DNA from: Conoideocrella luteorostrata
Taxonomy: Eukaryota; Ascomycota; Sordariomycetes; Hypocreales; Clavicipitaceae
Direction of reading: 5' to 3'
Assembly: GCA_032433595.1 (NCBI GenBank)
Contig: JASWJB010000096.1
Location: 62,001-126,000, forward strand
Length of the DNA: 64,000 nt
Part shown: in pieces, positions 10,556 through 46,865 of the stretch
How positions within the stretch are numbered: position 1 is the stretch's first letter
Layout of the letters: each line of letters begins with the position of its first letter
Program-made: the position numbers and the translations under genes
The notes under the pieces: generated by a model
Databases searched by the model: none
Told to the model about the DNA's origin: nothing
The model's input: only the letters and a program-made list of their open reading frames with translations

Positions 10556-11062
10556 ATATAAGCGGATGATATCTTACGGAAGCTCAAGCAGGCAACGAAC
10601 TAGGCACAAGCAGCAATGGCTATAGCTTAGCAATCTTAAGAGGAAGCAGCCAACCGTACCCGACAACAGGTGCCCGCGTTTAAAGTCTGTGATAAGATCT
10701 GGCTTGACTTAAGAAATATATGTACAAGTCGCCCTTGCAAGAAGCTAGATGCGAAGTACGCAAAGTTCTCGGGGATCGGGAAGATAAGCTCTCGTAGCTA
10801 CTGTCTCGATACACCACCGGGTATTCATAATATCTTCCACGTAGCGTTGTTATGGACAGCTGCAACAGACCCGTTGCCCTCGCAGATTCGTACAGACCAC
10901 CAACCACCTCCGCAGTTAGTTGATAGAGAAGAAGAGTATGAGCTAGAGGCTATCTTACGAGAAAGGTATGACCGACGAGGGCGAGGTCGCAAGAAGAAAT
11001 ACCTCGTTAAATGGGCAGGCTATCAAGAGCCGACGTGGGAGCCGGCGTCTGCCTTGTAAAGA
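10556..11062 (+). pseudogene. Ty3/gypsy chromovirus integrase C-terminus and chromodomain relic
   Basis: The frame from 10670 reads the integrase C-terminal module (VCDKIWLDLRNI, KKLDAKYAKF, LDTPPGIHNIFHVALL) followed by a chromodomain (EYELEAILRERYDRRGRG, then KKKYLVKWAGY and PTWEPASAL), the layout typical of fungal chromoviruses. Upstream codons are interrupted by stops, and the frame ends at TAA inside the chromodomain tail, so it is dead. It lies directly left of the proposed inversion breakpoint near 11175. Confidence 0.85.
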
Positions 11063-11174
11063 TACTGCCCTACTGGAAACTTGGAAACGTCTCGCGGAAG
11101 GTCGGAGTATTGTGACGGGTTACACCCTGAGTGAGACTCGGCCGCGGATAAATATCATGATTCGTATCTAGAGA

Positions 11175-11570
11175 CGTAGTTGGCGGTTGATAGATAAGAT
11201 CCGCTCATATAAGAACAAGACCGAAGCTTTCGAAAACGTTAGGCTGATGTTGTACACGACAGCCACGGAGAGGGGCAACTGAAAATCCAATACACTATTA
11301 GCATTATACCTTTCCACTGGTAAAAAGAACTGATGCAAGAAGTTTTCGGCAGAGGTACGGTTCCTTACTTAGAAGAAGATAATGAGCTGTTCACAACTGT
11401 AGGTCTCGATGTGATAGCCCACACCACTATCCACGACGCCCAGGACTAAGAATGCGATAGCCGCAAACAAGGCCACAAGAATCATCCAGTCATTCAACCA
11501 AAACTTCATCGTGGAGGAGTATCTCCGCGTGATGAAGCGTGCGATTACTAAGATAGTGGCTAGAAAATTG
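11175..11570 (-). pseudogene. N-terminal half of a split SAT4/fungal-rhodopsin-like membrane protein gene
   Basis: On the minus strand the frame encodes the first membrane segments of a SAT4 (PTH11-like, fungal rhodopsin domain) protein: FNFLATILVIARFITRR, then NDWMILVALFAAIAFLVLG and SGVGYH. The frame then meets TAA directly before a good donor (GTAAGG at 11368); a Gln codon CAA changed to TAA would explain it. A GT-AG intron (11368-11279) with a TGCTAAT branch site leads to exon 11278-11175, reading VYNISLTFSKASVLFLYERIL, the expected next part. The gene then stops abruptly in the Arg codon of QLR. The rest of such a protein begins at the matching Arg codon at 24575 on the other strand. Confidence 0.75.
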
Positions 11571-12161
11571 AAGACGGTATCGAGTGCGAGACATCACGTT
11601 CGCGCTCGCTAACGCGATATGGATGCCCTACGAAAGGCTGAGCGGGCGTGAGCGGGCGCGCTGGGCATAGTGAAAGGAGTTGTATGACTGAAGCTCCCCC
11701 GAATGAGTGTGCAGGATGACGTTCACACGCGAAAGGGTCAAGTATAGTTGAACGATGCAGCCGCACCACCTTGATGGCTTTCCAAGACTTGACGGTAGTG
11801 GCGAAAATGTCCTAGAGCCCGACTTCGAAGGATGGTGGTGTAGGCTTTATCGGTCAATGTTTCTCCCTCAGGTCAGCGCACAGGTACCTTGGAGGTATCT
11901 GCGGATCTGTACTGTACCAAGTGTCAGTCAGCAGCAGCGTGCTGGCTCTATCTATGTCAGTGCTGCAGTAGCCCCGCAAAAACGATTCATTACCCAGTCA
12001 TCTCCTTACAAACCAACGTTGGAAGGCTCTACCAGCTCATTCATAGCCTGCCGACCTCGCGCCGCTTGAGCATCTCAAATCAACCAAAGCCTGACATAAC
12101 GTTGCTCGCGTCGCATATCGTCTGCGTTCTCTTCTTTGTTCTATCGTCGGCATACCCAAAC

Positions 12162-14366: not shown

Positions 14367-16170
14367 TTACTCTGTCTCGTGGTCCTTGTATAAAGTGGCA
14401 ATCTCGGCTTCATAGTCTTTTAACGTTCTTGCCCTTAGGACAGACCCTTTGTCAGCTCGCTGGAATGGTTTCTTTGGGGAGGTAAAAAGAATCATAGACT
14501 TGTAGATTCTAGCGTGCTGATCCATTTCTTCGTTGGCCTTATCAATCGTGGGCCAGATCTCTTCTCTCAGCGTCTCGGCTTGCTGCTTCGTCTGGGGAGG
14601 AACAGCGGCTTCGACCAGTAGCCCTGGGCATGTGTGGCCGATGCCGCAGACGAGGGCAGCGACGACGCCTGAGTGGCTGGCGACGGCAGATTCAAGGGGG
14701 GCGGGCTCGATGTTGCGCCCCGTGCTGAGGGTGATCATGTCGTCTTTGCGGCCGCGGAAGCGCCACATGTTCTGGCGATGCGGGTGTCTGGAGAAGAGGT
14801 CCTTTGTGGGAAACTCGTCTAGGTCCGGGAAGTTCTGGAAGACGAATTGCGCCTTTTCGAACGCGGGGTCGCGCACAAGAATCTGCTCGTGCAGATCCTC
14901 GGAGAAATAGCGCATCTGGCACCCGGTCAGGTCGTGGAAGTTATGCCACTCATAGTCGTCCTCGTGCTCAGGCACGAGGGCCAGCAGGGCTGCCTCGCTA
15001 GATCCAAAGGCGCATTCAATCCGAACTCGAGATCGAACCGCGTCGGCGATGGTCGTGGAGGGGAAGGGGGCTCCAGCCCAGATAACGTGGTGGAGGTGGC
15101 GGAGCGCGTCGACTTTACCTGCGTCACGGGTCAAGGCCTGCAGGTGGGCCGGGGCCATGATTGCTGCTTCGCAGAGGTCATGCTGAAAGATTTGGGAAGC
15201 AATATCCGGATTAAGGGGGCGGTCCGCGGGGGGGAGAATCATTGGCATGTTGAAATAGACGGCCCAGGGTCCGAGAGCAAGGAGGCCGACGCCCTAGTGG
15301 TGATTGAAGTCGTTAGCTAATATTCCATCTATTAAGCAGTCTTACGTACATGGCTCGGTGTGAGGCCAAGGAGATGGCATTTGTCTTTCCACACCTCCTT
15401 GACAAGTGTTGTCGGGCCGTGGGGGAGGATGCACTCTGGCTTGCCTAGCCATTGAATAGCAGCAACGGCATTGAATTTCCAGGCAATGAGCTTTGGATCG
15501 CCTGAGACTTGATGAGCTGCTGCGTGCCTTGTCAACGGAAGCCTGCATACATACCGGTAGAGCCCGACGTGTGAATGACGGCGTAGTCCCTTCCGCGCAA
15601 CTGATCAATCGTCATGCTGATTGGGTATCTAGCGGTTGGTGGTCCGTCCAGAAGCCATTCCAACGACGGCGACGGATGAAGGCGAGTCTCGGTGCCCGCA
15701 GTGGCAAGTTGGGCTGCCGTGACAAGATCCGCATCGTCTCCAGCTACAAGCAGATGACGGCAACTGGCTGCGGCGAGCAGCTTGGCATGAGCGGTCACGG
15801 GAGCCCAAGACGAGAGAAGTAGCGCCTGGCAGGTCGCGAGTCAGCGACGACACGCTGGAGCACGGGGTGTCCTTACCTTGTGTCCTGTCTTGGCCGCGGC
15901 CATGGTGAGAATGGGGTATCGGAGATCGGCAGGACCAACGTAGGCCGATGATTCAAAACTCTCGGATCTGCCGAGCGTCTCTAACAGCCAGTGAGCTGCG
16001 CGATCCGCAGCCTCTGACATGTCGCGGTAGCTGACTCTTCGGAGGTGGACTTTGCCATTGTCATCGACGCGGGTGATGGCGCCGAAGAGGCGGTTGGGTT
16101 CGACGGCTGCACGTTGGTCAATGATGTCGGGCAGCGTGGCATGCTCTTCGGTCAAGGAGGCGCAATTCAT
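14367..16170 (-). CDS. NRPS-like adenylation-domain protein, truncated (no carrier or reductase domain)
   Basis: Four exons (16170-15877, 15825-15555, 15501-15350, 15293-14367) give 547 aa; all introns are GT-AG, 51-56 nt. It is an AMP-binding (ANL superfamily) enzyme that should activate a carboxylic acid as acyl-AMP. Intron 2 interrupts the phosphate-binding motif TSGSTG/DPK. Later come WAVYFNMPM, FRGRKDDMI (hinge and A8 region) and the C-terminal lid ending KPFQRADKGSVLR and DYEAEIATLYKDH. That is the end of the A domain in fungal aminoadipate-reductase-like A-T-R proteins, but here a stop follows at once, with an AT-rich block beyond. Either it now works as a stand-alone ligase or its 3' end was lost. 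The GTG at 16191 is not used as start; the first ATG is at 16170. Confidence 0.8.
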
Positions 16171-17171
16171 TGTCGAGGCTGTAGCGATCACAGCTTTAGA
16201 AGAAAAGAAAGGCGCAAGATTGGAATGTCACTCATGGCGAGTGGTATTAACAAGATAAATGCTGACGTGAACGACGGTAAATGACAGAAAGCCAGCAGTC
16301 GACGCTGCGAAAAGGTCAAGTTTGTCAACATAACATTTGACCGACCCTGTAAGCCGCATCAAGGGTCCCAGCCAACAACGGTCCAACGCCGGGTGTGATA
16401 GATGATGCTTTAGCCACTGCTCTTGGTCGGATGGGTGTGACGAGACAAAAATCCCTCCATCCTATTTCTGACTAAATCAGGTTATTGACCACCCTACAGC
16501 CTTGTTCTGTGCATCTTTCTAGTTGCCCGGTTGGGGTTTGGGGGCGTCATGTTTGAACGAGACAACGGTGGCTCAGAGAGAGCGCCTGCATGCATGGAGA
16601 AGTTGGTGTGCGGGATATTTCATTGATAGTACATGTCGTGTATTACTTCGCCGCTATCGTTGACTGCGCGGAGACCAACTCGGGCCACCGGCGGAGGGAT
16701 GGTGGGGAAAATCTGGATGGCCCCCTATCCTGTCCTGTCCTGTCGCTCAGCCTAACAATTACACAATCCAACCCTTTAATTATTGTTAACAAGCTATGAC
16801 AAACAGGGTATAGGTAGCCAATTAAAACTATTTATTTGAGACTTACTCCGTACAGCAAGTAGAGTGGGGCAAAATCTACTACGTAGAATCGCTTGCAGAG
16901 TACTGTGAACTCATGTAGTACTATTTCTTAGTAGGGTAAAGAGGGTTGCTCCACACTAAAAATATATTTTTTTTAGAAAAAGTAGATAATACAAGCCGTA
17001 CTACGGAATACAGTGCTTTTATAGGTGATGTGACGCACCAGTGGCTATTAAAGTAGGACCTAATCTCCTGCTTGTCACGAGTGGTTGATACTTTGACGAT
17101 TGGATTGTAGATCAAGTCCGACCTCCATCCTTGTACATCTTTTGTGAACGTCCATTCAGCCGACAGCCCCC
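16171..17171. other. Intergenic region upstream of the adenylation gene
   Basis: About 1 kb between the start of the adenylation gene and the 3' end of the SAT4-type gene, both on minus. It should hold the adenylation-gene promoter. I see no further gene. AT content rises towards 16740-17000. Confidence 0.4.
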
Positions 17172-18404
17172 TTACCGGGCCGAGACGTTCACATCAATAC
17201 TAGTTCGCAAGTGAATGTGGTTCGGTGCAGGGTTCTCCACGTCCCACCGTCTTCCGCCCCCCTTGAGCTCGACCAGTGCCAAATCATCTGCGTCGTTGTA
17301 GGAGCGGCTTTTGTCAAGACCTCGTGACTTGTGCGCGAATTTCGCCGCAGCCCTCGGCGCCGCTTCCCCGTGCGCTCCCTGTCGCTGAGACTGAGATAAG
17401 ACACCGCTGCCAAAAAGGTGGATTAGGACCGGTCGATAGGTCGGCAGACAGGCGGCGATGAGGTATACGTTGGTCTCGACGATGCACCAGATCATCAGGC
17501 TGACCGACGACCATGTGCCGTCCTCGACGGCCGAGTCGCGAAAGAATTCGGAAAAGCGGAGAATCGACGTGGCCAGGCCGCTTTTTATTTCCAGTCCTGC
17601 ATGTCAGTCTCACCCTCTTTTGTTTTATTCTTCCCTTGGTGGAGCGAAGGGCTAAAGACGTACAGGCTGCCGGCCGCAAAGGCCACGCTCAGACCGAGCT
17701 TCAGCTTCAGCGGCGCATGCAGCTTCCACACGACGGGCGCGGGAAGCGCCAGCATGACCACGTCGGTGAGGATGTTAGGCAGTGAGCCCCAGCGGTAGAA
17801 GTCCTGCTTGTTGACGCAGGACCCCTCGACTCGACGATTCCAGTTATACTCGAACGGTCGGCACAAGCTCAAGGACATGACGCTACAGATGAGTCCCGTA
17901 ACGGCGACCACCGCTGCCAGGATGTAAATGGTGATTCGGTATTTTTTCGGCGCGAAGATTCTGTGGTAAAAGGCCAGAATCGCCAGCTTGGGCACGCCGA
18001 CGCAGACGAAGTATTGGAATGATACGGCGAGGAGATACTTGAAGTAGCGCGTCGCCACGGCTGGGTCGGTCCGTTCCCATACGATGAAGTGGCGGCCGAC
18101 GCCCCCGTATCTAATGAACACTAGTCCTCCCCACAAAAAACGTCAGAAATCGCTTCGATGTCTTTTTTTTTGTTTTAAAGTTTACCTTACCAATTGCTAG
18201 GGCTGACTCGCCCAATTGCAGCACTGTCGACACGACGACCAAGACGTCATCCAGACCTAGTTTCGTAGCACTAAGATGGCGCGACCAGAAGCGTAGACCC
18301 ACGAAACAGAGCAGGATAGGAATGAAAGCAATGGCCAGGCCTTCCAGCCTATCGCCGTTGTAGTCATTGAAGATCTCAGGTGGGAGAGGCGCGGTGTCTG
18401 CCAT
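17172..18404 (-). CDS. SAT4/fungal rhodopsin-domain (PTH11-like) integral membrane protein
   Basis: Exons 18404-18191, 18126-17664 and 17580-17172 give 361 aa. The second intron uses the strong donor GTACGT at 17663. Several membrane helices are visible: LEGLAIAFIPILLCFVGLRF, then LAVSFQYFVCVGVPKLAILAFY, the YILAAVVAVTGLICSVMSL helix, PNILTDVVMLALPAPVVW, and NVYLIAACLPTYRPVLIHLF near the end. CRPFEYNW is the Cys-containing loop typical of the family. The Ser/Arg-rich tail ends in the HIHLRT-type motif common in these proteins. PTH11-like proteins are thought to be G-protein-coupled receptors or membrane sensors; the ligand is unknown. It lies about 0.8 kb downstream of the precursor-peptide gene on the same strand. 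It is an intact paralogue of the split gene at 11.2/24.6 kb. Confidence 0.85.
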
Positions 18405-19167
18405 GATTGAACGGTAGGGCGGGGATAATCGAAACGGTGGTGGGCAAAACAAAAGGAAGAAAGAAAGTCGGAGCGACGGCATACATGTTGAAAATATACA
18501 TCACTATGTTGCATCTGAACATCTAACGCCCCGAAAGCCTGTTTTTTTCTCTCTCTCTCTTTTGACAACCCACATGTTTTGTCCTTCTCTGCCGCATGCT
18601 CTTGTTTTGCTCCTTTTCGTTTGTTCATTTTAATCTTCTCCCTCTGCTTAAAATAGACTAGACTAGACTTGTGACCTGCACATATATAATCCTACACATA
18701 TATTATCCTGCACATATATTATCCTCTAAAGAAGTGTTATCTCTGTCCTCTAGTGGAGGGTGGGACCACCGCTGACACACGCATGAACTTGTCAGCATGC
18801 ATGCACCGCACCGTCTTTGGGGGCAGGCAGGGGTGCCAATGTGAATCTCTCGGTGTGATGGAGATTCTGCCGTATCTTTGGGGCTATCCCGGTGCGGCGA
18901 CGAGAAATCAGCCTGGGTAACGGTGTGCGCCATTTTTCTCACATGTCTCGGCACCGCGGGACGATGGACATGGCTTTCATCGCCCGTCTTGGTGTGCTCC
19001 CTGGTTCACGTCACATCACGCGTCGTTGGTGGACAGGCTACGTTACGCAGAGGAGGGGTGGAAGAAAATCGTTCGTTTATTCTTGGTGAAGCTTACTCTG
19101 TACATGAGAGTGACTACGTTCCCCCAACGAATCTTGCCCCAAGCATCTTGCGCTACCATCCATCACT
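18405..19167. other. Intergenic region between the SAT4 gene and the precursor gene
   Basis: Contains the 3' flank of the precursor gene and the promoter side of the SAT4-type gene. Three direct copies of a CACATATATNATCCT unit lie at about 18679-18725. I see no gene here. The plus-strand frame crossing it is rejected as antisense. Confidence 0.45.
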
Positions 19168-19449
19168 TCAAGCTGACCACGAATTGCGCACAAGGTCATC
19201 TGCATCAACAACGGTTCGTGCAGACCAGGAATTCCTGACGAGGTCGTCGGCGTCGATGCCGCGGATGCGAATCCCGGACGCGGCCTTGGACGTGTCTGGA
19301 TATAAAAGAAAAGTGAATGAGCTCTTGTTCCTGTCATTTTCATGGCATGGGCGCGATAAAAGGAAACATTTTCCACATTTACCTCTGGAGGTGGGAAGGG
19401 CGAGGCCGAAGCCGAAGCCACAAAAGATTAGAAATGACGCTAAGTGCAT
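19168..19449 (-). CDS. Candidate RiPP precursor peptide: signal peptide plus two tandem core repeats
   Basis: Exon 1 (19449-19383) and exon 2 (19295-19168) are joined across an 87-nt intron with donor GTAAAT and acceptor TATCCAG, giving 64 aa. The ATG has a good context (ACAAACAATG). Residues 1-21 form a secretory signal (hydrophobic core LASFLIFCGFGFGLAL). A short leader ending IRIRG follows, then two copies of DADDLVRNSWSA separated by ARTVV-type residues, and then a stop. The repeats differ at 10 of 36 nt, all synonymous on minus, while the plus-strand reading changes amino acids; this shows coding selection on minus. A tiny secreted protein with near-identical repeats next to UstYa-family genes is how dikaritin precursors look (UstA and PhomA are known examples). 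Those use Lys-Arg sites; here only single Arg residues flank or lie within the repeats. The intron is also open in frame (93 aa if retained). The product is unknown. Confidence 0.75.
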   Translation of the reverse strand: MHLASFLIFCGFGFGLALPTSRGKCGKCFLLSRPCHENDRNKSSFTFLLYPDTSKAASGIRIRGIDADDLVRNSWSARTVVDADDLVRNSWSA

Positions 19450-19542
19450 TGTTTGTTTTGTAAAGATGATACGACGAAGTGTATTTCAGTGGGTGATGCG
19501 AGTGGAAGGATCTTATTCTTTAGAGAGACAAGCCGTCTCGTA

Positions 19543-19549
19543 TTATATA
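19543..19549 (-). promoter_or_regulatory. TATA-like box of the precursor gene
   Basis: On the minus strand the sequence reads TATATAA about 95-100 bp upstream of the precursor ATG. That is a plausible position for a TATA element of a highly expressed short gene. An imperfect GAGAC...GTCTC inverted pair lies beside it. Confidence 0.35.
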
Positions 19550-19771
19550 CTCATGGTGGTGGTGTGGGTGTTGGTGGCAACTGCTGGCAGAACCACTTGC
19601 GTGGCAGATACGATCGTCTCACCCAATCCAAGCCCGCCTCGAGAGCATGCGTCGCGTTCCGATGAGTTGCCGTCCTCGGCACCCCCTTGGCTTCTGTTCT
19701 CGTGCGCTACCCGGTCGGGCGTCCTATTCTTCCCCGTTCGGGGACTCGATTTTTTTTACCAAGAGCGATAA

Positions 19772-20300: not shown

Positions 20301-21284
20301 TCATTCTCTTCTGGCCGCCAAGATCAAGACGACAGGCCATGAAAGCGCTCTCATCGCTCCCTCATCGCCCATAGCCTCAGTCAATTGTTCAAAGAGCTTC
20401 TCCATGGCGGCATCTGGTCCGACCAATTCACGGGGCTTCGGAAAGCTAGCCTTGACAAATCTCTTGAGCATGGACACGTCCCAACGAACTTCCCAGAATG
20501 TCGGATCCTGCTCCTCGAGCACCGTCTCGTGTGTGCCAACCATGGAGACGGGCTCAACAGCAAAGTCACAAATGCGAGGGGTGAAGAAGGAGAGCCGGGC
20601 GGCCGTGTTCCACTTATGACGACGTACATTATGCCACTGCTCGGGTGCAAAGGGGATGTAGTCCAGCCAGCTGAGCATGCCGTCGGTGGCGCGCTTCCAG
20701 CTCTTCTTTTGAGCATCGTCGCCCCCGCTAACAACAGGGTAGAAGTTGAGGTCCATGATGGAGTCTAGGAGTGGCTGACAGGCAGTCGCAAAGCTGGCCT
20801 CGGTGAAGAAGGGTGGTCCGTAGAACCAAACTGCGAGCGTCCCGCCTGGACGGAGCAGGGTTGCCGCGTTGTTCATTGCAATGTGTGTGTCCATGAGGGG
20901 AAATGCTTCTGCGCAGGTTATAAGGTCAAAATAGCTGGGCGGGAAATGCTGCATGAGGTCTTCACCTCGAGACAAGATAAAGGAGAGACGCTCCAAGGGA
21001 AGCTTCGAGTATCGTCGTCGAGCAAAGTCCAAGCTGGTATTATCATTGTCGCTGGCAACAACATGCGCAAACTGCTCCGTCAGCGGTCCAACGGCAGAGC
21101 CTGATCCGGACCCGATGTCAAGAGCTGCTAAACGAGATTGCGAATGAGCGGCCTGGTAAGCATAGACGTGGCTGAAGACGGCATCGTCGTAGACCGGACG
21201 GGTCGTAATGTATTCATCCCAGTATGTCGCCTCGATATTGTGCAGCTTCCAAAACACATGGTCGTTCTTGCCGTGCTTGTCCAT
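20301..21284 (-). CDS. Class I SAM-dependent methyltransferase
   Basis: Intronless, 327 aa, starting MDKHGKNDH. The frame is open to 21530, but the upstream part does not resemble the family, so the ATG at 21284 is preferred. Motif I is LDIGSGSGSAVG (SAM-binding glycine loop), with the acidic end of strand 2 at ASDND, motif II around YFDLITCAEAF and LRPGGTLAVWFYG as the post-I strand and loop. This is the Methyltransf_11/25 fold, close to the fungal Crg1-type small-molecule methyltransferases. No signal peptide, so cytosolic. It is divergent from the UstYa-family gene at 21742, with which it shares a promoter region. Methyltransferases belong to known dikaritin clusters (UstM of ustiloxin); N- or O-methylation of a peptide product is inferred. 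Confidence 0.88.
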   Translation of the reverse strand: MDKHGKNDHVFWKLHNIEATYWDEYITTRPVYDDAVFSHVYAYQAAHSQSRLAALDIGSGSGSAVGPLTEQFAHVVASDNDNTSLDFARRRYSKLPLERLSFILSRGEDLMQHFPPSYFDLITCAEAFPLMDTHIAMNNAATLLRPGGTLAVWFYGPPFFTEASFATACQPLLDSIMDLNFYPVVSGGDDAQKKSWKRATDGMLSWLDYIPFAPEQWHNVRRHKWNTAARLSFFTPRICDFAVEPVSMVGTHETVLEEQDPTFWEVRWDVSMLKRFVKASFPKPRELVGPDAAMEKLFEQLTEAMGDEGAMRALSWPVVLILAARRE

Positions 21285-21741
21285 GATGGAAAAACAGCAG
21301 GACGTGACGGAATGGTGAAGTTGTCTAAGCGGGGCAAACACCAAGCTCTCACTTGGCGTGTGCACAGGAATGCATTGAGAGAACAAGCAGCATGCGGATA
21401 TAAGCAGGATTGATTGACAGGCTAGAAAAAAAGGCGCAGTCTCCTGTTTCGCACCCTCATAAAACGTAACAAATGCAAAAGGTCTACGTCGTGCAGTGAG
21501 GGGCGGTGTCATGCGCTCGAGGACCTGCATGGCAATTAATGCTAACTCACTTTATCTTACTGCAGTATTAGCTAGTGCTGACTGACTCAATCTTGCTGCA
21601 GGGCTTCGAAGTCGCGCAGGAGGGGGGTGGAATGGTCGGCACGCACCGTGACTCTCCCTCCCCCGTTTTCTGATTTTCATCTCTCTTGTACTGCTCTGTT
21701 TTCTCTTCACCCTTATCAGTTGACACATTATCCAATACAGG
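21285..21741. promoter_or_regulatory. Divergent promoter between methyltransferase and UstYa-A genes
   Basis: A 457-bp intergenic region between two divergent starts. It holds a perfect TGACTCA (21583-21589), the Gcn4/CpcA (cross-pathway control) palindrome. It also has a short direct repeat, TCTTACTGCAG at 21555 and TCTTGCTGCAG at 21591. Amino-acid-starvation control of a peptide pathway would make sense, but a single 7-bp site can occur by chance. Confidence 0.4.
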
Positions 21742-22843
21742 ATGCACGTAATAGAATACCATCGTCTTTTGCCTGCTCATGATGATGCCGAGTTTAGCCT
21801 CGATCACGGCTTAATAGTTAAGCCTAAAAAGTCCCGCATCACCTTTCTCGCCGTCTTTGGGCTCCTCTTAGCGTCAAATATCGTATTTGCTTTACTTTGG
21901 CTCAGTTGTCTTATGCACCGAGCTGATCCAGCCGACGCAGAATGCGTGCGACCTCAGTTGGTGTACTGCAAGTCCAGCCCGTCTCGACTCATACCCCTTG
22001 GTTTGAGCCCAGCTGACATTTTCTTTCCTTGGATCTCAACAGCCCCAGCATCCAGTGTCATTCGCTACGAAAAACGGCGTCTATGGCGAGATATCGATGG
22101 GCCAAATCCCTTCACCGGAAAGCCTCGGCCAGAATTTGATAGTGCATGGAGGAATCTCGTAGCTCGTGAGCAATACTTCCTATCTAGAAGAATAATTCTG
22201 CACAATGTGTTTTTTTAACTCCCTAATACCCTTAGCCATCATTATCAAAGTGTCGGGCAGTGAGCTTGCCATGTTCAGTGAGGGTGACAGCACATTGGCC
22301 TTCAAGGATGGTTCTGGATACATTGCCGAAATCGGTGTGTATCACGAGTTGCATTGTATTGTGGGTGGCTCTTTCCCTTCCTGTCGCTTTCTTTTCTTTT
22401 CTTTTCTTTTCTTTTCTTTTCTTTTCTTTTGGGTGAGGGGGGTAGATTTATCACCATAGCAGTGCCAATGCGTTCGCTAATAATGCTCGGAAGAAACGCG
22501 TGAGACGTTACTTGTATTTGGACCATTACTACCCGAATTTGACAACAGCAGATCGGGTAAGAGAAAATTTGCACATAGGTAACGTTTTTGGTCAAACAAG
22601 ACAGACAAGAGGTCATTAAATCATTTTAGTAACCGCCCATTAGACCATTGCCTCGAATACTGGAGAGAGTCTGCAATGTGCCGAGGCGACACAACCCTTG
22701 GAACATTGTTTTGGAACCATGGCGTGCCTACATCAAGAGTGTACACGAATAATGAGTGTGTTGACTGGGGAGCGCTTGATGATTGGGCGAGGCAGAGAAT
22801 GGTTGACATGGCAGATTACTCTCAGTTTATCAAGGATGAGTGA
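21742..22843 (+). CDS. UstYa-family (DUF3328) oxidative cyclisation protein A
   Basis: Exons 21742-22165, 22236-22360, 22494-22578 and 22644-22843 give 277 aa; each boundary keeps frame with GT-AG sites. Layout: a cytosolic N-terminus, one membrane helix at about 34-57 (LAVFGLLLASNIVFALLWL), then the lumenal DUF3328 domain with APASSVIRYE, FTGKPRPEFDSAW, DGSGYIAEIGVYHELHC (first HxxHC) and HIDHCLEYWRESAMC (second HxxHC). UstYa-type proteins are needed for macrocyclisation or oxidation of RiPP peptides in fungi, and the His/Cys motifs are thought to bind copper. Intron 2 (133 nt) contains nine TTTTC units in a row (an expandable tract) and splices at GGAAG. The gene is divergent from the methyltransferase and convergent with UstYa-B, 105 bp away. 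It appears intact. Confidence 0.88.
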
Positions 22844-22948: not shown

Positions 22949-23772
22949 CTAAGTCAGGATTCCAGTGTCCGAAGAGTTGGCATATTTCTCCGCCCAGGAG
23001 AAAACATCAGCATAGCTCCGACATTGCTTGGGTTGGCCCCATCCATTAGTGAGATGTGTATCACGGTCTAACACCTCGAGGTTGGTATCTGCTGCGCATA
23101 TCAAGGCTTGTCTAATGTAATCAAAGCAGTGTCGTACGTGGGACGGAGCTATTCGTGTATTGGTATTATTATCCAAGTCGGGAACACCTGTGAGGTTATT
23201 CGGTGGCTGGCTTTCCAGCGCCTTGTAGTAGGCGACGACGATGGCATGCTGTAGTTGGGCTGTGAGCAGGAGGTTTCATCAGCTAAGCGAGGGATTGTGG
23301 GTTGCGGAAACTCACCAGGCAGTGTAGTTGGTGGAATACTGCGATGTTGGAGATAAAGGGCGCCAGCTCATGGTGGTGTACGAAGCCTCGCCCAACTGGG
23401 ATAATGGAGTTCCATGCTGCCTCGGACGACGGCGACGGTCTCTCGGTAAAGGTGATATTGTGTTGCCAGTAGAGGCGCACCTTGCCTGGGGGAACTGATT
23501 TTCACCTGACTCAGTATGAGACTTGCTGTTAGGCTGGGGGGGAGAGGTGGCTAACCTGGGAGGCCAAACGTGGACGTGCTTGGCGGATGAAGTCTTGCGA
23601 GCCCGGCCAAGTAGCCAACAACAACGGACAGGATGACTGCGGTGAGCATGTTGATCCATTTTTGGGCTTGAATTGACTGCGAAGACCTCGCGGTCGGCTC
23701 CAGGTCCTTCTCATGCTGTCTTAGTAGACACTCGCCGTCTCCCTCGTCGGTAGATGGCAAAATCGGTGCCAT
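22949..23772 (-). CDS. UstYa-family (DUF3328) oxidative cyclisation protein B
   Basis: Exons 23772-23556, 23494-23316 and 23248-22949 give 231 aa. The membrane helix is at about 42-60 (LTAVILSVVVGYLAGLARL). The DUF3328 domain has ERPSPSSEAAWNSI, then ISNIAVFHQLHC (first HxxHC, around residue 130) and HVRHCFDYIRQALIC (second HxxHC, around 172), ending YADVFSWAEKYAN. Both copper-type motifs are intact. It is shorter than UstYa-A and clearly divergent from it, so the two are different subfamily members rather than a recent tandem duplicate. Paired UstYa proteins are usual in dikaritin clusters (UstYa/UstYb in ustiloxin), where they act together. Confidence 0.88.
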
Positions 23773-24177: not shown

Positions 24178-24574
24178 TGCGGGTGCGTAAATGCAGGACC
24201 TAAATGGTGTGAGAGGAGATATGACTACACGAGGCGATTGGTCCATCGAAGTCTCCATCCCAAGCAGATAGTCTGACAGAGCACAATGAAATCACAGTTC
24301 GTCTTTCCAACTTGGTGCAATGCCCTTCCGTTTGCTGACCGCCTTGCTATCTTCCTTGAGAATAAGGCGACTCTTTGATGCGTGTTTGGTCTTATTTATC
24401 CGCCTCTGAGCCGCTGCTTTCCAAAAACTTGGCATCAATGGTAATACCATTATATAAAGTATGACTGAAACTATATGCAGGCTCATGTCTAGCTTGTAGT
24501 TCGCTACCAGCATACTGGAGACTTTTCTGCTCACGGCCAATAAGAGATGCTAATACGAGTACTAAGAGTCCTTT

Positions 24575-25263
24575 CGATGGGCTGTTTACGTCATGCTGGG
24601 CATCGTGGCAGTATGGACCGTGTCCTACTTTTTCACCAATTTGCTCATCTGCTTTCCGGTAACAGCCCTCATAGAGCCCTTTTACGGCAATAATTGCATC
24701 AATGGTGTGCCGATGTGGCACTCCAACATCATCACTGACCTAGTCGTGGATGTGGGCATCCTTCTCATGCCCGTTCCCATGGTTTTACGACTCCAACTAC
24801 CGTGGAAGGAAAGGACATGCCTACTTGGAATCTTCCTGCTTGGCGCGACGTAACGTGACCCGTACTTGATACGTTTTGCGGACGCGGACTGATGATGTTC
24901 CAGGGTTTGCGCAATTAGCCTAACGCGCCTAATAACACTGTTGGAGGTTGCTAAGGAGTATATTCAACATGGTAACGACGTGACATGTAAATCTTGCGTG
25001 GAAAAAAACATTGTCCCGGGAAGCAGTCTAATGCCGCGGCTCTCGCAGACTATACGTCGCCAGCGTTCTACTGGACCAACATTGAGATGGCCATGGCCGT
25101 GGTCTCGGCCTGCCTGCCGACACTGCGGCCTATCTGGGTCCATTTGTCGAGTCCCTCACCTCAGCCCTCGGGCCAGCCATCAGGATCAGGCTCATGCGAG
25201 GAGGATGGACAGGCGGTACTCCACGGGCCATTATGGGCAAGCAATAAGGAGGCACGTACCTAG
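24575..25263 (+). pseudogene. C-terminal half of a split SAT4/fungal-rhodopsin-like membrane protein gene
   Basis: Exons 24577-24849, 24904-24971 and 25049-25263 encode the last five or so helices of a SAT4-type protein: WAVYVMLGIVAVWTVSYF, the Cys loop region, then SNIITDLVVDVGILLMPVPM, LLGIFLLGATVCAIS and FYWTNIEMAMAVVSACLPTL. The part beginning at Arg (CGA, 24575) has no N-terminal helices: upstream the frame hits stops at once, and I find no first exon between 24178 and 24575. The missing part matches what is encoded at 11570-11175 on the opposite strand, which ends in the same Arg codon. Confidence 0.75.
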
Positions 25264-45592: not shown

Positions 45593-46072
45593 GACCGCGT
45601 CGATAATAGTGGTAAAACGGTGAGGGCCAGGTAAGGGGGCGGATGGTATAGCCGTTGTAGAATCGTAACGGTATCGCACGCTCTGCGCAAAGGAGCAGTG
45701 CTGGGATATTAGTGCTAATTATGTGTCGACACACATTAGGACGGTAAGAAATGTCCCCCCGTGTTGCTTTGGGAAAGAGTCCGTGATCCGTAAATGTGGT
45801 CGAAAGGACTACGTCTCCTCTTATAGATGCAGACGCGGAAGCGATCTGTGGTTGATATGCGAGGGTGCTACTGAATATCGCTCAGCCCACCGAATTCGTT
45901 ACAGTACAAAAAACGCAGTTGTTGGAAGAAGATAAGAAGTCCGGTGCAAAGGGCCTACGATGAAGTCTCTTTTATCTTTCATGCGACTCCTTTTGAAGAA
46001 TATGATGTAAGTGACATGTGGTCATAATGAAAGAAGACTTCCTTTCCTAAAGGCAAAGATAAGAAACATGCA

Positions 46073-46865
46073 GATTAATTCAAAGGCCGTACTTTGGCGG
46101 GCCGTCTGACATCTCAAAACCAGAGAGCAAAGATAAAGAAACATGCCGATTAATTCAAAGGCCGTACTTTAGCGGGCCGTCTGACATCTCAAAACCAGAG
46201 AGCAAAGATAAAGAAACATGCCGATTAATTCAAAGGCCGTACTTTAGCGGGCTGTCTGACACCTCAAAACCAAAGAGCAAAGATAAAGAAACATGCTAAT
46301 TAATTCAAAGGCCGTACTTTAGCGAGCTGTCTGACACCTTAAAACACAAATAGTTAGTTATTTCTTCGGGGCGGTGTGCAAGACGGTACTCACAAGAACT
46401 CGTCCGTTGCCGAAGGAGCCGATTAATTCAAAAGCCGTACTTTGGCGGGCCGTCTGACACCTCAAAACACGAATGGTCAGTCATTTCTTCGGGGCGGTGT
46501 GCAAGACGGTACTCACAAGAACTCGTCCGTTGCCGAAGGTGCCGATTAATTCAAAGGCCGTACTTTGGCGGGCCGTCTGACACCTCAAAACCAAAGAGCA
46601 AAGATAAAGAAACATGCCGATTAATTCAAAGGCCGTACTTCGGCGGGCCGTCTAACACCTCAAAACCAAAGAGCAAAGATAAAGAAACATGCAAATCAAT
46701 TCAAAGGCCGTACTTTAGTGGGCCGTCTGACACCTCAAAACACGAATAGTTAGTCATTTCTTCGGGGCAGTGTGCAAGACGGTACTCACAAGAACTCGTC
46801 CGTTGCCGAAGGAGCCGATCAATTCAAAGGCCGTACTTTGGCGGGCCGTCTGACACCTCTAAAAA
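46073..46865. repeat. Minisatellite with two exact unit lengths (75 and 123 bp)
   Basis: Nine copies of the core TTCAAAGGCCGTACTTTNGC (first 20) run in one direction, with core units beginning at 46073, 46148, 46223, 46298, 46421, 46544, 46619, 46694 and 46817. The spacings are 75, 75, 75, 123, 123, 75, 75 and 123 bp. Short spacers contain GCAAAGATAAAGAAACATGC; long ones contain TTTCTTCGGGGCGGTGTGCA and CTCGTCCGTTGCCGAAGG. Unit lengths show no indel although bases differ. No open frame spans it. It lies between the starts of the divergent UGDH and FAD-oxidoreductase genes. Confidence 0.92.

What the first reader, a model, noticed from the sequence alone, without database searches (positions are those of the whole stretch)
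19168..19449. A new repeat-bearing secreted peptide gene: candidate RiPP precursor with a DADDLVRNSWSA core
Seen: a two-exon gene for 64 residues with a signal peptide, a short leader, and two tandem copies of a 12-residue unit, then a stop. Known: dikaritin-type RiPPs (ustiloxin, phomopsin, asperipin) come from secreted repeat precursors beside UstYa genes. Inference: this is the precursor of a new cyclic peptide whose core lies in the repeat, perhaps the Trp-containing NSWSA freed by cleavage at Arg. The repeat is unlike the known cores I recall. It has no Lys-Arg sites, so the processing protease may differ.
Basis: partly seen in the sequence, partly recalled or inferred. Interest (0 to 1): 0.95.

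Follow-up and report, generated by a model that had tools for sequence, protein, structure and literature searches.

The report
Conserved tryptophan repeat peptide precursor
A small, apparently unannotated fungal gene encodes a probably secreted peptide with two copies of a 12-residue unit that recurs almost unchanged in precursors from distantly related fungi, several of them beside an oxidase of the type that ties such peptides into rings, so it very probably makes an undescribed ribosomal peptide product.

Summary
The window is from Conoideocrella luteorostrata. The minus-strand gene 19449-19168 encodes, if an 87-nt intron is removed, 64 residues: a hydrophobic N-terminus and two copies of DADDLVRNSWSA. 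The 36-nt copies differ at 10 bases, all synonymous; 0 of 300,000 random sets of 10 changes were. A database search found 16 relatives (15 at E<0.001) in Xylariomycetidae, Aspergillus, Hymenoscyphus and unnamed sources. With the window they carry 45 units; D1, D3, V6, N8, S9, W10 and S11 never vary. Six of 16 share an exact contig length with a UstYa-2 relative, three with consecutive locus tags. Two UstYa genes with the HXXHC motif lie 2.3 and 3.5 kb away. Six of 13 other UstYa places scanned in this genome also hold repeat precursors.

Two inferences need changing. Position 7 is H in 17 of 45 units, so release of NSWSA by a cut at that Arg is not general. The missing Lys-Arg is a lineage trait: 13 of 45 units are followed by KR, 26 by a single basic residue. 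Verdict: precursor of a new UstYa-type RiPP family; product and chemistry unknown.

The parts
19168..19449 (-). Precursor gene (exon 1 19449-19383, intron 19382-19296, exon 2 19295-19168), 64 residues
   Evidence: relatives. Splicing inferred, not observed.
19219..19254 (-). Repeat unit 1, DADDLVRNSWSA, followed by a single Arg (RTVV)
19171..19206 (-). Repeat unit 2, DADDLVRNSWSA, ends the protein
   Evidence: 10 synonymous differences from unit 1
19383..19449 (-). Exon 1: hydrophobic putative signal peptide MHLASFLIFCGFGFGLALPTSR
   Evidence: M1, A17, P19 invariant in 15 rows; no signal-peptide predictor was available
22949..23772 (-). UstYa-2 oxidase, 3 exons, 231 residues; identical to annotated QQS21_005649; motifs HQLHC and HVRHC; N-terminal helix 31-60 in the model
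   Evidence: Pfam UstYa 73.7 bits; 100% match; H127, H130, C131, H172, C173 invariant in 33 rows; model
21742..22843 (+). UstYa-1 oxidase, hand-made splice model of 267 residues, motif HELHC
   Evidence: Pfam UstYa 149 bits, profile 7-220; model not checked against an annotation
20301..21551 (-). Methyltransferase (open frame, stop to stop), between precursor and UstYa-1
   Evidence: Pfam Methyltransf_11 53.4 bits
17172..18500 (-). Fung_rhodopsin-domain membrane protein, next gene found on the other side of the precursor; membership of the cluster not tested
24566..24853 (+). Part of a second Fung_rhodopsin-domain gene; membership of the cluster not tested
   Evidence: 77.6 bits
25933..27159 (+). 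FAD-binding oxidase (FAD_binding_4); possible tailoring enzyme, membership not tested
   Evidence: 65.3 bits
14367..16227 (-). AMP-binding (adenylating) enzyme; membership not tested
   Evidence: AMP-binding_C_3 124.8 bits on 14367-15293; the frames 15532-15840 and 15841-16227 gave no Pfam match alone, and joining them to it is by eye

Best explanation
The gene is the precursor of a UstYa-type (dikaritin-like) RiPP. Shown: a repeat gene under strong protein-level selection, a conserved family of such precursors, and physical linkage in several fungi to relatives of the UstYa oxidase next to it. Inferred: the protein enters the ER through its N-terminal signal; the chain is cut after the basic residue(s) that follow each unit (Kex2 at KR in Aspergillus, Hymenoscyphus and two unnamed relatives; at a single basic residue, by Kex2 or another protease, here and in Xylariomycetidae) and the basic residue is trimmed; each freed fragment ends in DADDLVxNSWS[A/E]. 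The acidic DADD probably plays the part of the 'ED' motif before the ustiloxin core, so the core would be LVxNSWSA or the whole 12-mer. The UstYa oxidases then oxidatively modify it, most likely joining the only aromatic residue, the invariant Trp10, to another invariant residue (Val6, Asn8 or a Ser), with possible methylation by the neighbouring methyltransferase. The ring and its target are unknown.
For: 10 of 10 base differences between the two copies are synonymous. 16 relatives, 15 at E<0.001, with tandem units in Sordariomycetes, Eurotiomycetes, Leotiomycetes and unnamed sources (classes checked for four species). 45 of 45 units keep D1, D3, V6, S11 when anchored on NSW alone. 6 of 16 relatives have a longest contig identical in length to that of one of the 105 UstYa-2 hits, three with consecutive locus tags: Xylaria grammica 376342/376343, Aspergillus tubingensis 005564/005565, Hymenoscyphus albidus 8359/8358 (compared by eye). 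Two UstYa genes with the HXXHC motif lie 2.3 and 3.5 kb from the precursor. Six of 13 other UstYa places scanned widely in the same genome hold repeat precursors; four of these, modelled with an intron after the signal peptide, gave phase 1 in three, as in the window, and phase 0 in one (the script looked for introns only after the signal, so their position is partly by construction).
Against: No transcript, peptide or metabolite was seen. The gene itself has no dibasic site and only two units. 10 of 16 relatives were not shown to share a contig with a UstYa gene (three of these lie on contigs under 2.6 kb). On a tree of 46 of the 105 UstYa-2 hits the seven rows with a precursor on the same contig, the window's included, are scattered inside a 37-row starred group (6 changes; 116 of 500 shuffles as low), so the tree does not show that the group is dedicated to this precursor; short genes left unannotated may explain it. 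No S41 peptidase like that of many dikaritin clusters was found on this contig. UstYa genes also serve non-RiPP pathways (PMC12048977, section 22 read). Seven of the 13 widely scanned UstYa places gave no clear precursor.
Confidence: 0.88

Rival explanations
1. A secreted linear signalling peptide (pheromone-like or other), whose linkage to UstYa is incidental; the near-invariant sequence reflects a receptor.
For: The unit is nearly invariant over the relatives found, whereas repeat sequences of such precursors are described as highly diverse (PMC7329392, abstract); repeat precursors with basic sites include alpha-factor-type pheromones (same passages).
Against: Same-contig linkage to UstYa-2 relatives in 6 of 16 relatives plus the window; PMC7329392 says almost all pheromone-type repeat proteins, with three exceptions, lack a DUF3328 neighbour (abstract). 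The unit does not resemble the pheromone cores that I recall.
Confidence: 0.08
2. A decayed relic: the lineage lost the KR sites and most repeats, and the precursor is no longer processed.
For: Only two units, no KR.
Against: Selection on the peptide persists between copies; the Xylariomycetidae relatives share the single-basic form with two or three units each; UstYa-2 is intact and its splice model is identical to the annotated protein.
Confidence: 0.05
3. The coding frame is really the 308-residue plus-strand frame 18845-19771 and the minus-strand repeat is its shadow.
For: That frame is open and also shows a weaker repeat.
Against: 3 of 11 residues differ between copies in that frame against 0 of 12 in the minus frame; all 16 relatives carry the minus-frame peptide.
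Confidence: 0.005

Closest known systems
Dikaritins (ustiloxin, phomopsin, asperipin-2a)
   Same: Signal-bearing repeat precursor, acidic residues before and basic residue(s) after the unit, nearby UstYa genes and (as UstM in ustiloxin) a methyltransferase.
   Different: No Tyr in the unit (the known ether links are on Tyr according to PMC7329392, passages); unit nearly invariant over three fungal classes in the set found; no S41 peptidase found on the contig; single-Arg site in this lineage. Presence of a tyrosinase was not searched for beyond the Pfam scans.
KEX2-processed repeat proteins (KEPs), PMC7329392
   Same: Tandem units behind a signal; relatives P0107, P0108, P0110 and P0116-P0119 have KR after a unit.
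   Different: The window gene and the Xylariomycetidae relatives lack the dibasic site that defines the class, so a KR-based search would be expected to miss them.
Epichloecyclins (GigA)
   Same: Signal peptide and few repeats in a fungus of (recalled) the same family, Clavicipitaceae (PMC6514808, passages).
   Different: Core cyclises on Tyr and has KR sites; sequences were not compared here.
Other repeat precursors of the same genome (contigs C8, C532, C604, C612, C54)
   Same: UstYa genes nearby; hydrophobic start followed by repeats; C612 also lacks KR (EPDRHQSYLKERGLV); the C532 unit also has Trp (NNQAGWG).
   Different: Visibly unrelated core sequences, 4 to 10 units.

Membership tests
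Dikaritin / UstYa-type RiPP | UstYa (DUF3328, PF11807) gene in the cluster | tested here: met
   Two genes, 149 and 73.7 bits against a cut-off of 25; HXXHC conserved in UstYa-2 relatives
Dikaritin / UstYa-type RiPP | Tandemly repeated core in the precursor | tested here: met
   Two units here, two to four in relatives
Dikaritin / UstYa-type RiPP | ER signal peptide on the precursor | tested here: inconclusive
   Hydrophobic N-terminus with conserved A-x-P; no predictor available
Dikaritin / UstYa-type RiPP | Oxidatively cyclised core peptide product | not testable with these tools
   Needs mass spectrometry or NMR
Dikaritin / UstYa-type RiPP | S41 peptidase, recurrent in the clusters | tested here: not met
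   Two S41 matches in the genome, on contigs C268 and C190, not C96; recurrent but not required: the asperipin-2a cluster is described as four genes without one (PMC6514808 passages)
KEX2-processed repeat protein | Dibasic Kex2 sites between units | tested here: not met
   Single Arg after unit 1, none after unit 2; met in 7 of 16 relatives by reading
KEX2-processed repeat protein | Tandem units behind a secretion signal | tested here: met
   for the units; the signal is inferred
Alpha-factor-type pheromone precursor | As a rule no DUF3328 neighbour; pheromone-like core | tested here: not met
   UstYa genes nearby; core unlike those recalled, not compared by a tool

The most novel reading that the evidence does not exclude
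A single UstYa-modified peptide, with a Trp-based cross-link that I do not know to be described for this enzyme family, has been kept almost unchanged across Eurotiomycetes, Leotiomycetes and Sordariomycetes, as if its target were conserved; and one lineage (Xylariomycetidae plus Conoideocrella) differs in its maturation site, a single basic residue in place of dibasic Kex2 sites.
Probability: 0.35. Interest if true: 0.75.

Novelty: new member of a known kind. Interest (0 to 1): 0.62.

Why it matters
The repeat sequences of fungal precursors of this kind are described as highly diverse (PMC7329392, abstract); here a 12-residue unit is nearly invariant in precursors from three fungal classes, which argues for one conserved product and target. 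Its only aromatic residue is Trp, so it offers a direct test of whether UstYa oxidases act on Trp. It also suggests that searches requiring Lys-Arg sites or annotated genes miss members: this gene was not among the proteins returned by two searches, although its UstYa neighbour was.

Tried and rejected
The first protein search with the 64-residue letters gave 3 candidates and no hit; the second, with the 105-residue unspliced frame and words from residues 62-105 only, found 16 of 40 candidates. The first result was therefore a false negative. A search of viral contigs with the metagenomic relative P0107 found no relative. Rfam gave no match at the gathering score in the window. UstYa-2 has no convincing relative among solved structures by sequence (2 matches, best E 0.43) or by fold (3 matches, 0 with E<=0.001; model mean pLDDT 79.9).

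Considered and rejected: release of NSWSA at the internal Arg as the general route (position 7 varies R/H/K); a plus-strand gene; the array at about 46 kb as a second precursor (a 75/123-bp DNA satellite open in several frames on both strands). In the repeat scan, 20 rows passed the filter; by eye I set aside the overlapping or opposite frames of the same repeats, the L045 rows that repeat L044, two NDQRPTT-type rows in L042 and the HIGQIEPS row in L044. Contig C76 did not pass that filter (its copies are near-identical DNA) and is left out of the six.

Literature: searches. No text held contains DADDLV, DLVRNSW or RNSWS (its 7 papers matched only on NSWSA, all off-topic by title). A second search for six other fragments matched 42 papers, of which 15 were listed, none about a fungal peptide by title; 27 were not seen. 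Supplementary files, bioRxiv and most subscription journals were not searched, so a listing in a table of repeat proteins is possible.

Full report
The finding. The minus strand at 19449-19168 reads, after removal of an 87-nt GT-AG intron, MHLASFLIFCGFGFGLALPTSR-DTSKAASGIRIRGI-DADDLVRNSWSA-RTVV-DADDLVRNSWSA-stop. The two 36-nt units differ at 10 positions and every difference is silent. In 300,000 random sets of 10 substitutions none was silent throughout. The best plus-strand frame has 3 changed residues of 11, so the minus frame is the selected one. A scan of the whole window found no other such repeat except an array at about 46 kb. The gene was found once in the 46.4-Mb assembly. The intron is inferred.

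Identity of the organism. The hand-made splice model of the neighbouring UstYa-2 gene is identical over 231 residues to QQS21_005649 of Conoideocrella luteorostrata, a Clavicipitaceae fungus that infects scale insects. The genome announcement (PMC12352038, first of two parts of the text read) reports 48 antiSMASH clusters; the part read does not single out this one, though its class 'Other' includes fungal RiPPs, with two entries for this strain. The precursor itself was not among the proteins returned by either search, so it appears to be unannotated.

Neighbourhood. Along the window: an adenylating enzyme (14.4-16.2 kb, -), a Fung_rhodopsin membrane protein (17.2-18.5 kb, -), the precursor, a methyltransferase (20.3-21.6 kb, -), UstYa-1 (21.7-22.8 kb, +), UstYa-2 (22.9-23.8 kb, -), part of a second Fung_rhodopsin gene (24.6-24.9 kb, +) and an FAD-binding oxidase (25.9-27.2 kb, +). 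Which of the outer genes belong to the cluster was not tested. Both UstYa proteins carry HXXHC (HELHC, HQLHC). In an alignment of UstYa-2 with 32 of its 104 other hits, H127, H130, C131, H172 and C173 are invariant. The AlphaFold model (mean pLDDT 79.9) shows one N-terminal helix (31-60), as for a membrane anchor, and puts these residues on two helices (124-144 and 167-184). No solved structure gave a convincing match.

Relatives of the precursor. A search with words drawn from the repeat region found 16 proteins at E<=10, 15 of them at E<0.001. All 16 have two to four tandem units. Named sources are Hypoxylon texense, H. argillaceum, Truncatella angustata, Xylaria grammica, X. cubensis, X. 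longipes, Nemania serpens, Aspergillus tubingensis, A. bertholletiae, A. sergii, A. caelatus and Hymenoscyphus albidus; four have no name. With the window there are 17 precursors and 45 units. Anchored on NSW alone, D1, D3, V6 and S11 are 45 of 45, as are N8, S9 and W10 by the choice of anchor; an independent anchor on the acidic D[AD]D[DEG] gives the same 45 places, none without NSW; A2 44; D4 43; L5 39; position 7 is R 22, H 17, K 6; position 12 is A 36, E 8, Q 1. The relatives were found through shared words, so the set leans to conserved members. After the unit comes KR in 13, RR in 1, a single basic residue in 26, the end of the protein in 4 and Trp in 1. The dibasic forms are those of Aspergillus, Hymenoscyphus and two unnamed proteins; the single-basic forms are those of the Xylariomycetidae, two unnamed proteins and the window.

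Linkage to UstYa. By comparing by eye the contig lengths printed, 6 of the 16 precursors share the exact length of their longest contig with one of the 105 UstYa-2 hits: P0112/P0005, P0110/P0050, P0116/P0037, P0114/P0006, P0115/P0004 and P0119/P0026; the first three also have consecutive locus tags. For P0119/P0026 the printed species names differ (A. caelatus, A. pseudocaelatus), as each id stands for several sequences or contigs. The DNA of these contigs could not be read. On a tree of 46 chosen UstYa rows all seven linked rows, the window's included, lie in a 37-row starred group (and in a 32-row group within it, support 93/91, not starred), but they are scattered within it; this does not show that the whole group serves this peptide.

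Control within the genome. PF11807 matches 57 stretches. I scanned 22 fetched stretches covering 13 UstYa places other than the window's for tandem peptide repeats with mainly synonymous differences. Six of the 13 hold one: C8 (5 units, SADESYLPN-KR), C532 (9, NNQAGWG-KR or RR), C363 (AEYPVTWPN, apparently broken), C604 (4, EIDVADAF-KR), C612 (10, EPDRHQSYLKER, no KR) and C54 (8, VEDYFIGAD-KR). Five of the six begin with a hydrophobic start read by eye; C363 has no intact one. A seventh place, C76, repeats QCYNWIKRN by near-identical DNA and is unclear. Four more places, seen only in 3.3-kb loci, gave none, and eleven were not scanned. In C8, C604, C612 and C54 the best-scoring intron after the signal peptide is in phase 1 in the first three and phase 0 in C54; in the window it is phase 1; C532 needs none. 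In C8, C604 and C612, as in the window, the last unit ends the protein. Thus the window gene has the common anatomy of this genome's UstYa-linked precursors, and the want of KR is not unique to it.

How it probably works. UstA, the ustiloxin precursor, has cores flanked by acidic 'ED' and by 'KR' and is thought to be cut by Kex2 into 13- to 14-residue pieces before cyclisation by UstQ, UstYa and UstYb (PMC6514808, passages). The same plan fits here: acidic DADD, then LVxNSWS[A/E], then basic residue(s). By this analogy cutting occurs after the unit, at KR in some lineages and at a single Arg here. Cutting at the internal Arg7 is unlikely to be general, because His stands there in 17 of 45 units. 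Trp10 is the only aromatic residue in the window's unit, which makes it the natural site of oxidation; a bond to Val6 would resemble the Tyr-to-beta-carbon links of known dikaritins, but this is a guess.

Novelty. The kind of system is known. The core family appears undescribed in the texts searched, within the limits stated. Unusual points are the conservation over three classes, the absence of Tyr, and the difference of cleavage site between lineages. PMC7329392 reports that 65.6% of DUF3328-linked repeat sequences contain Tyr, so a core without Tyr is not in itself new (passages). Passages on RiPPs in the Hypoxylaceae survey (PMC8403587) mention only an ustiloxin-like cluster found through known precursor sequences.

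Changes made on re-checking: the distances to the UstYa genes (2.3 and 3.5 kb), the unit number of C612 (10), the order of Truncatella (Amphisphaeriales, hence 'Xylariomycetidae'), and the description of what was scanned.

Noticed in passing
G000 contigs C8 (L039 8.6-8.93 kb), C532 (L040/L041), C604 (L044 7.9-8.2 kb), C612 (L047 5.55-6.1 kb), C54 (L055 3.8-4.3 kb): Five further UstYa-linked repeat precursors with unrelated cores (SADESYLPN, NNQAGWG, EIDVADAF, DRHQSYL, VEDYFIGAD); the C532 unit bears Trp and the C612 one lacks KR.
   Followed up: partly
L042 4108-4242 (contig C363): AEYPVTWPN repeat near UstYa genes that looks broken (a stop soon after the start, a third copy in another frame); an intron was not tested. 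Left as it is.
   Followed up: no
UstYa-2, 22949-23772: The protein groups with Xylariales and other Sordariomycetes in a 12-row group (97/92); the only other hypocrealean name that I recognise among the 105 hits is the distant Cordyceps fumosorosea. Horizontal transfer of the cluster is possible but untested.
   Followed up: partly
46053-46741: Satellite-like array of 75- and 123-bp units.
   Followed up: no
10640-11059: Chromodomain fragment with a weak Tf2-1-like SH3 match, probably a retroelement relic.
   Followed up: no
17172-18500, 24566-24853, 11168-11593: Three Fung_rhodopsin-domain stretches around the cluster; why these membrane proteins gather here is unexplained.
   Followed up: no
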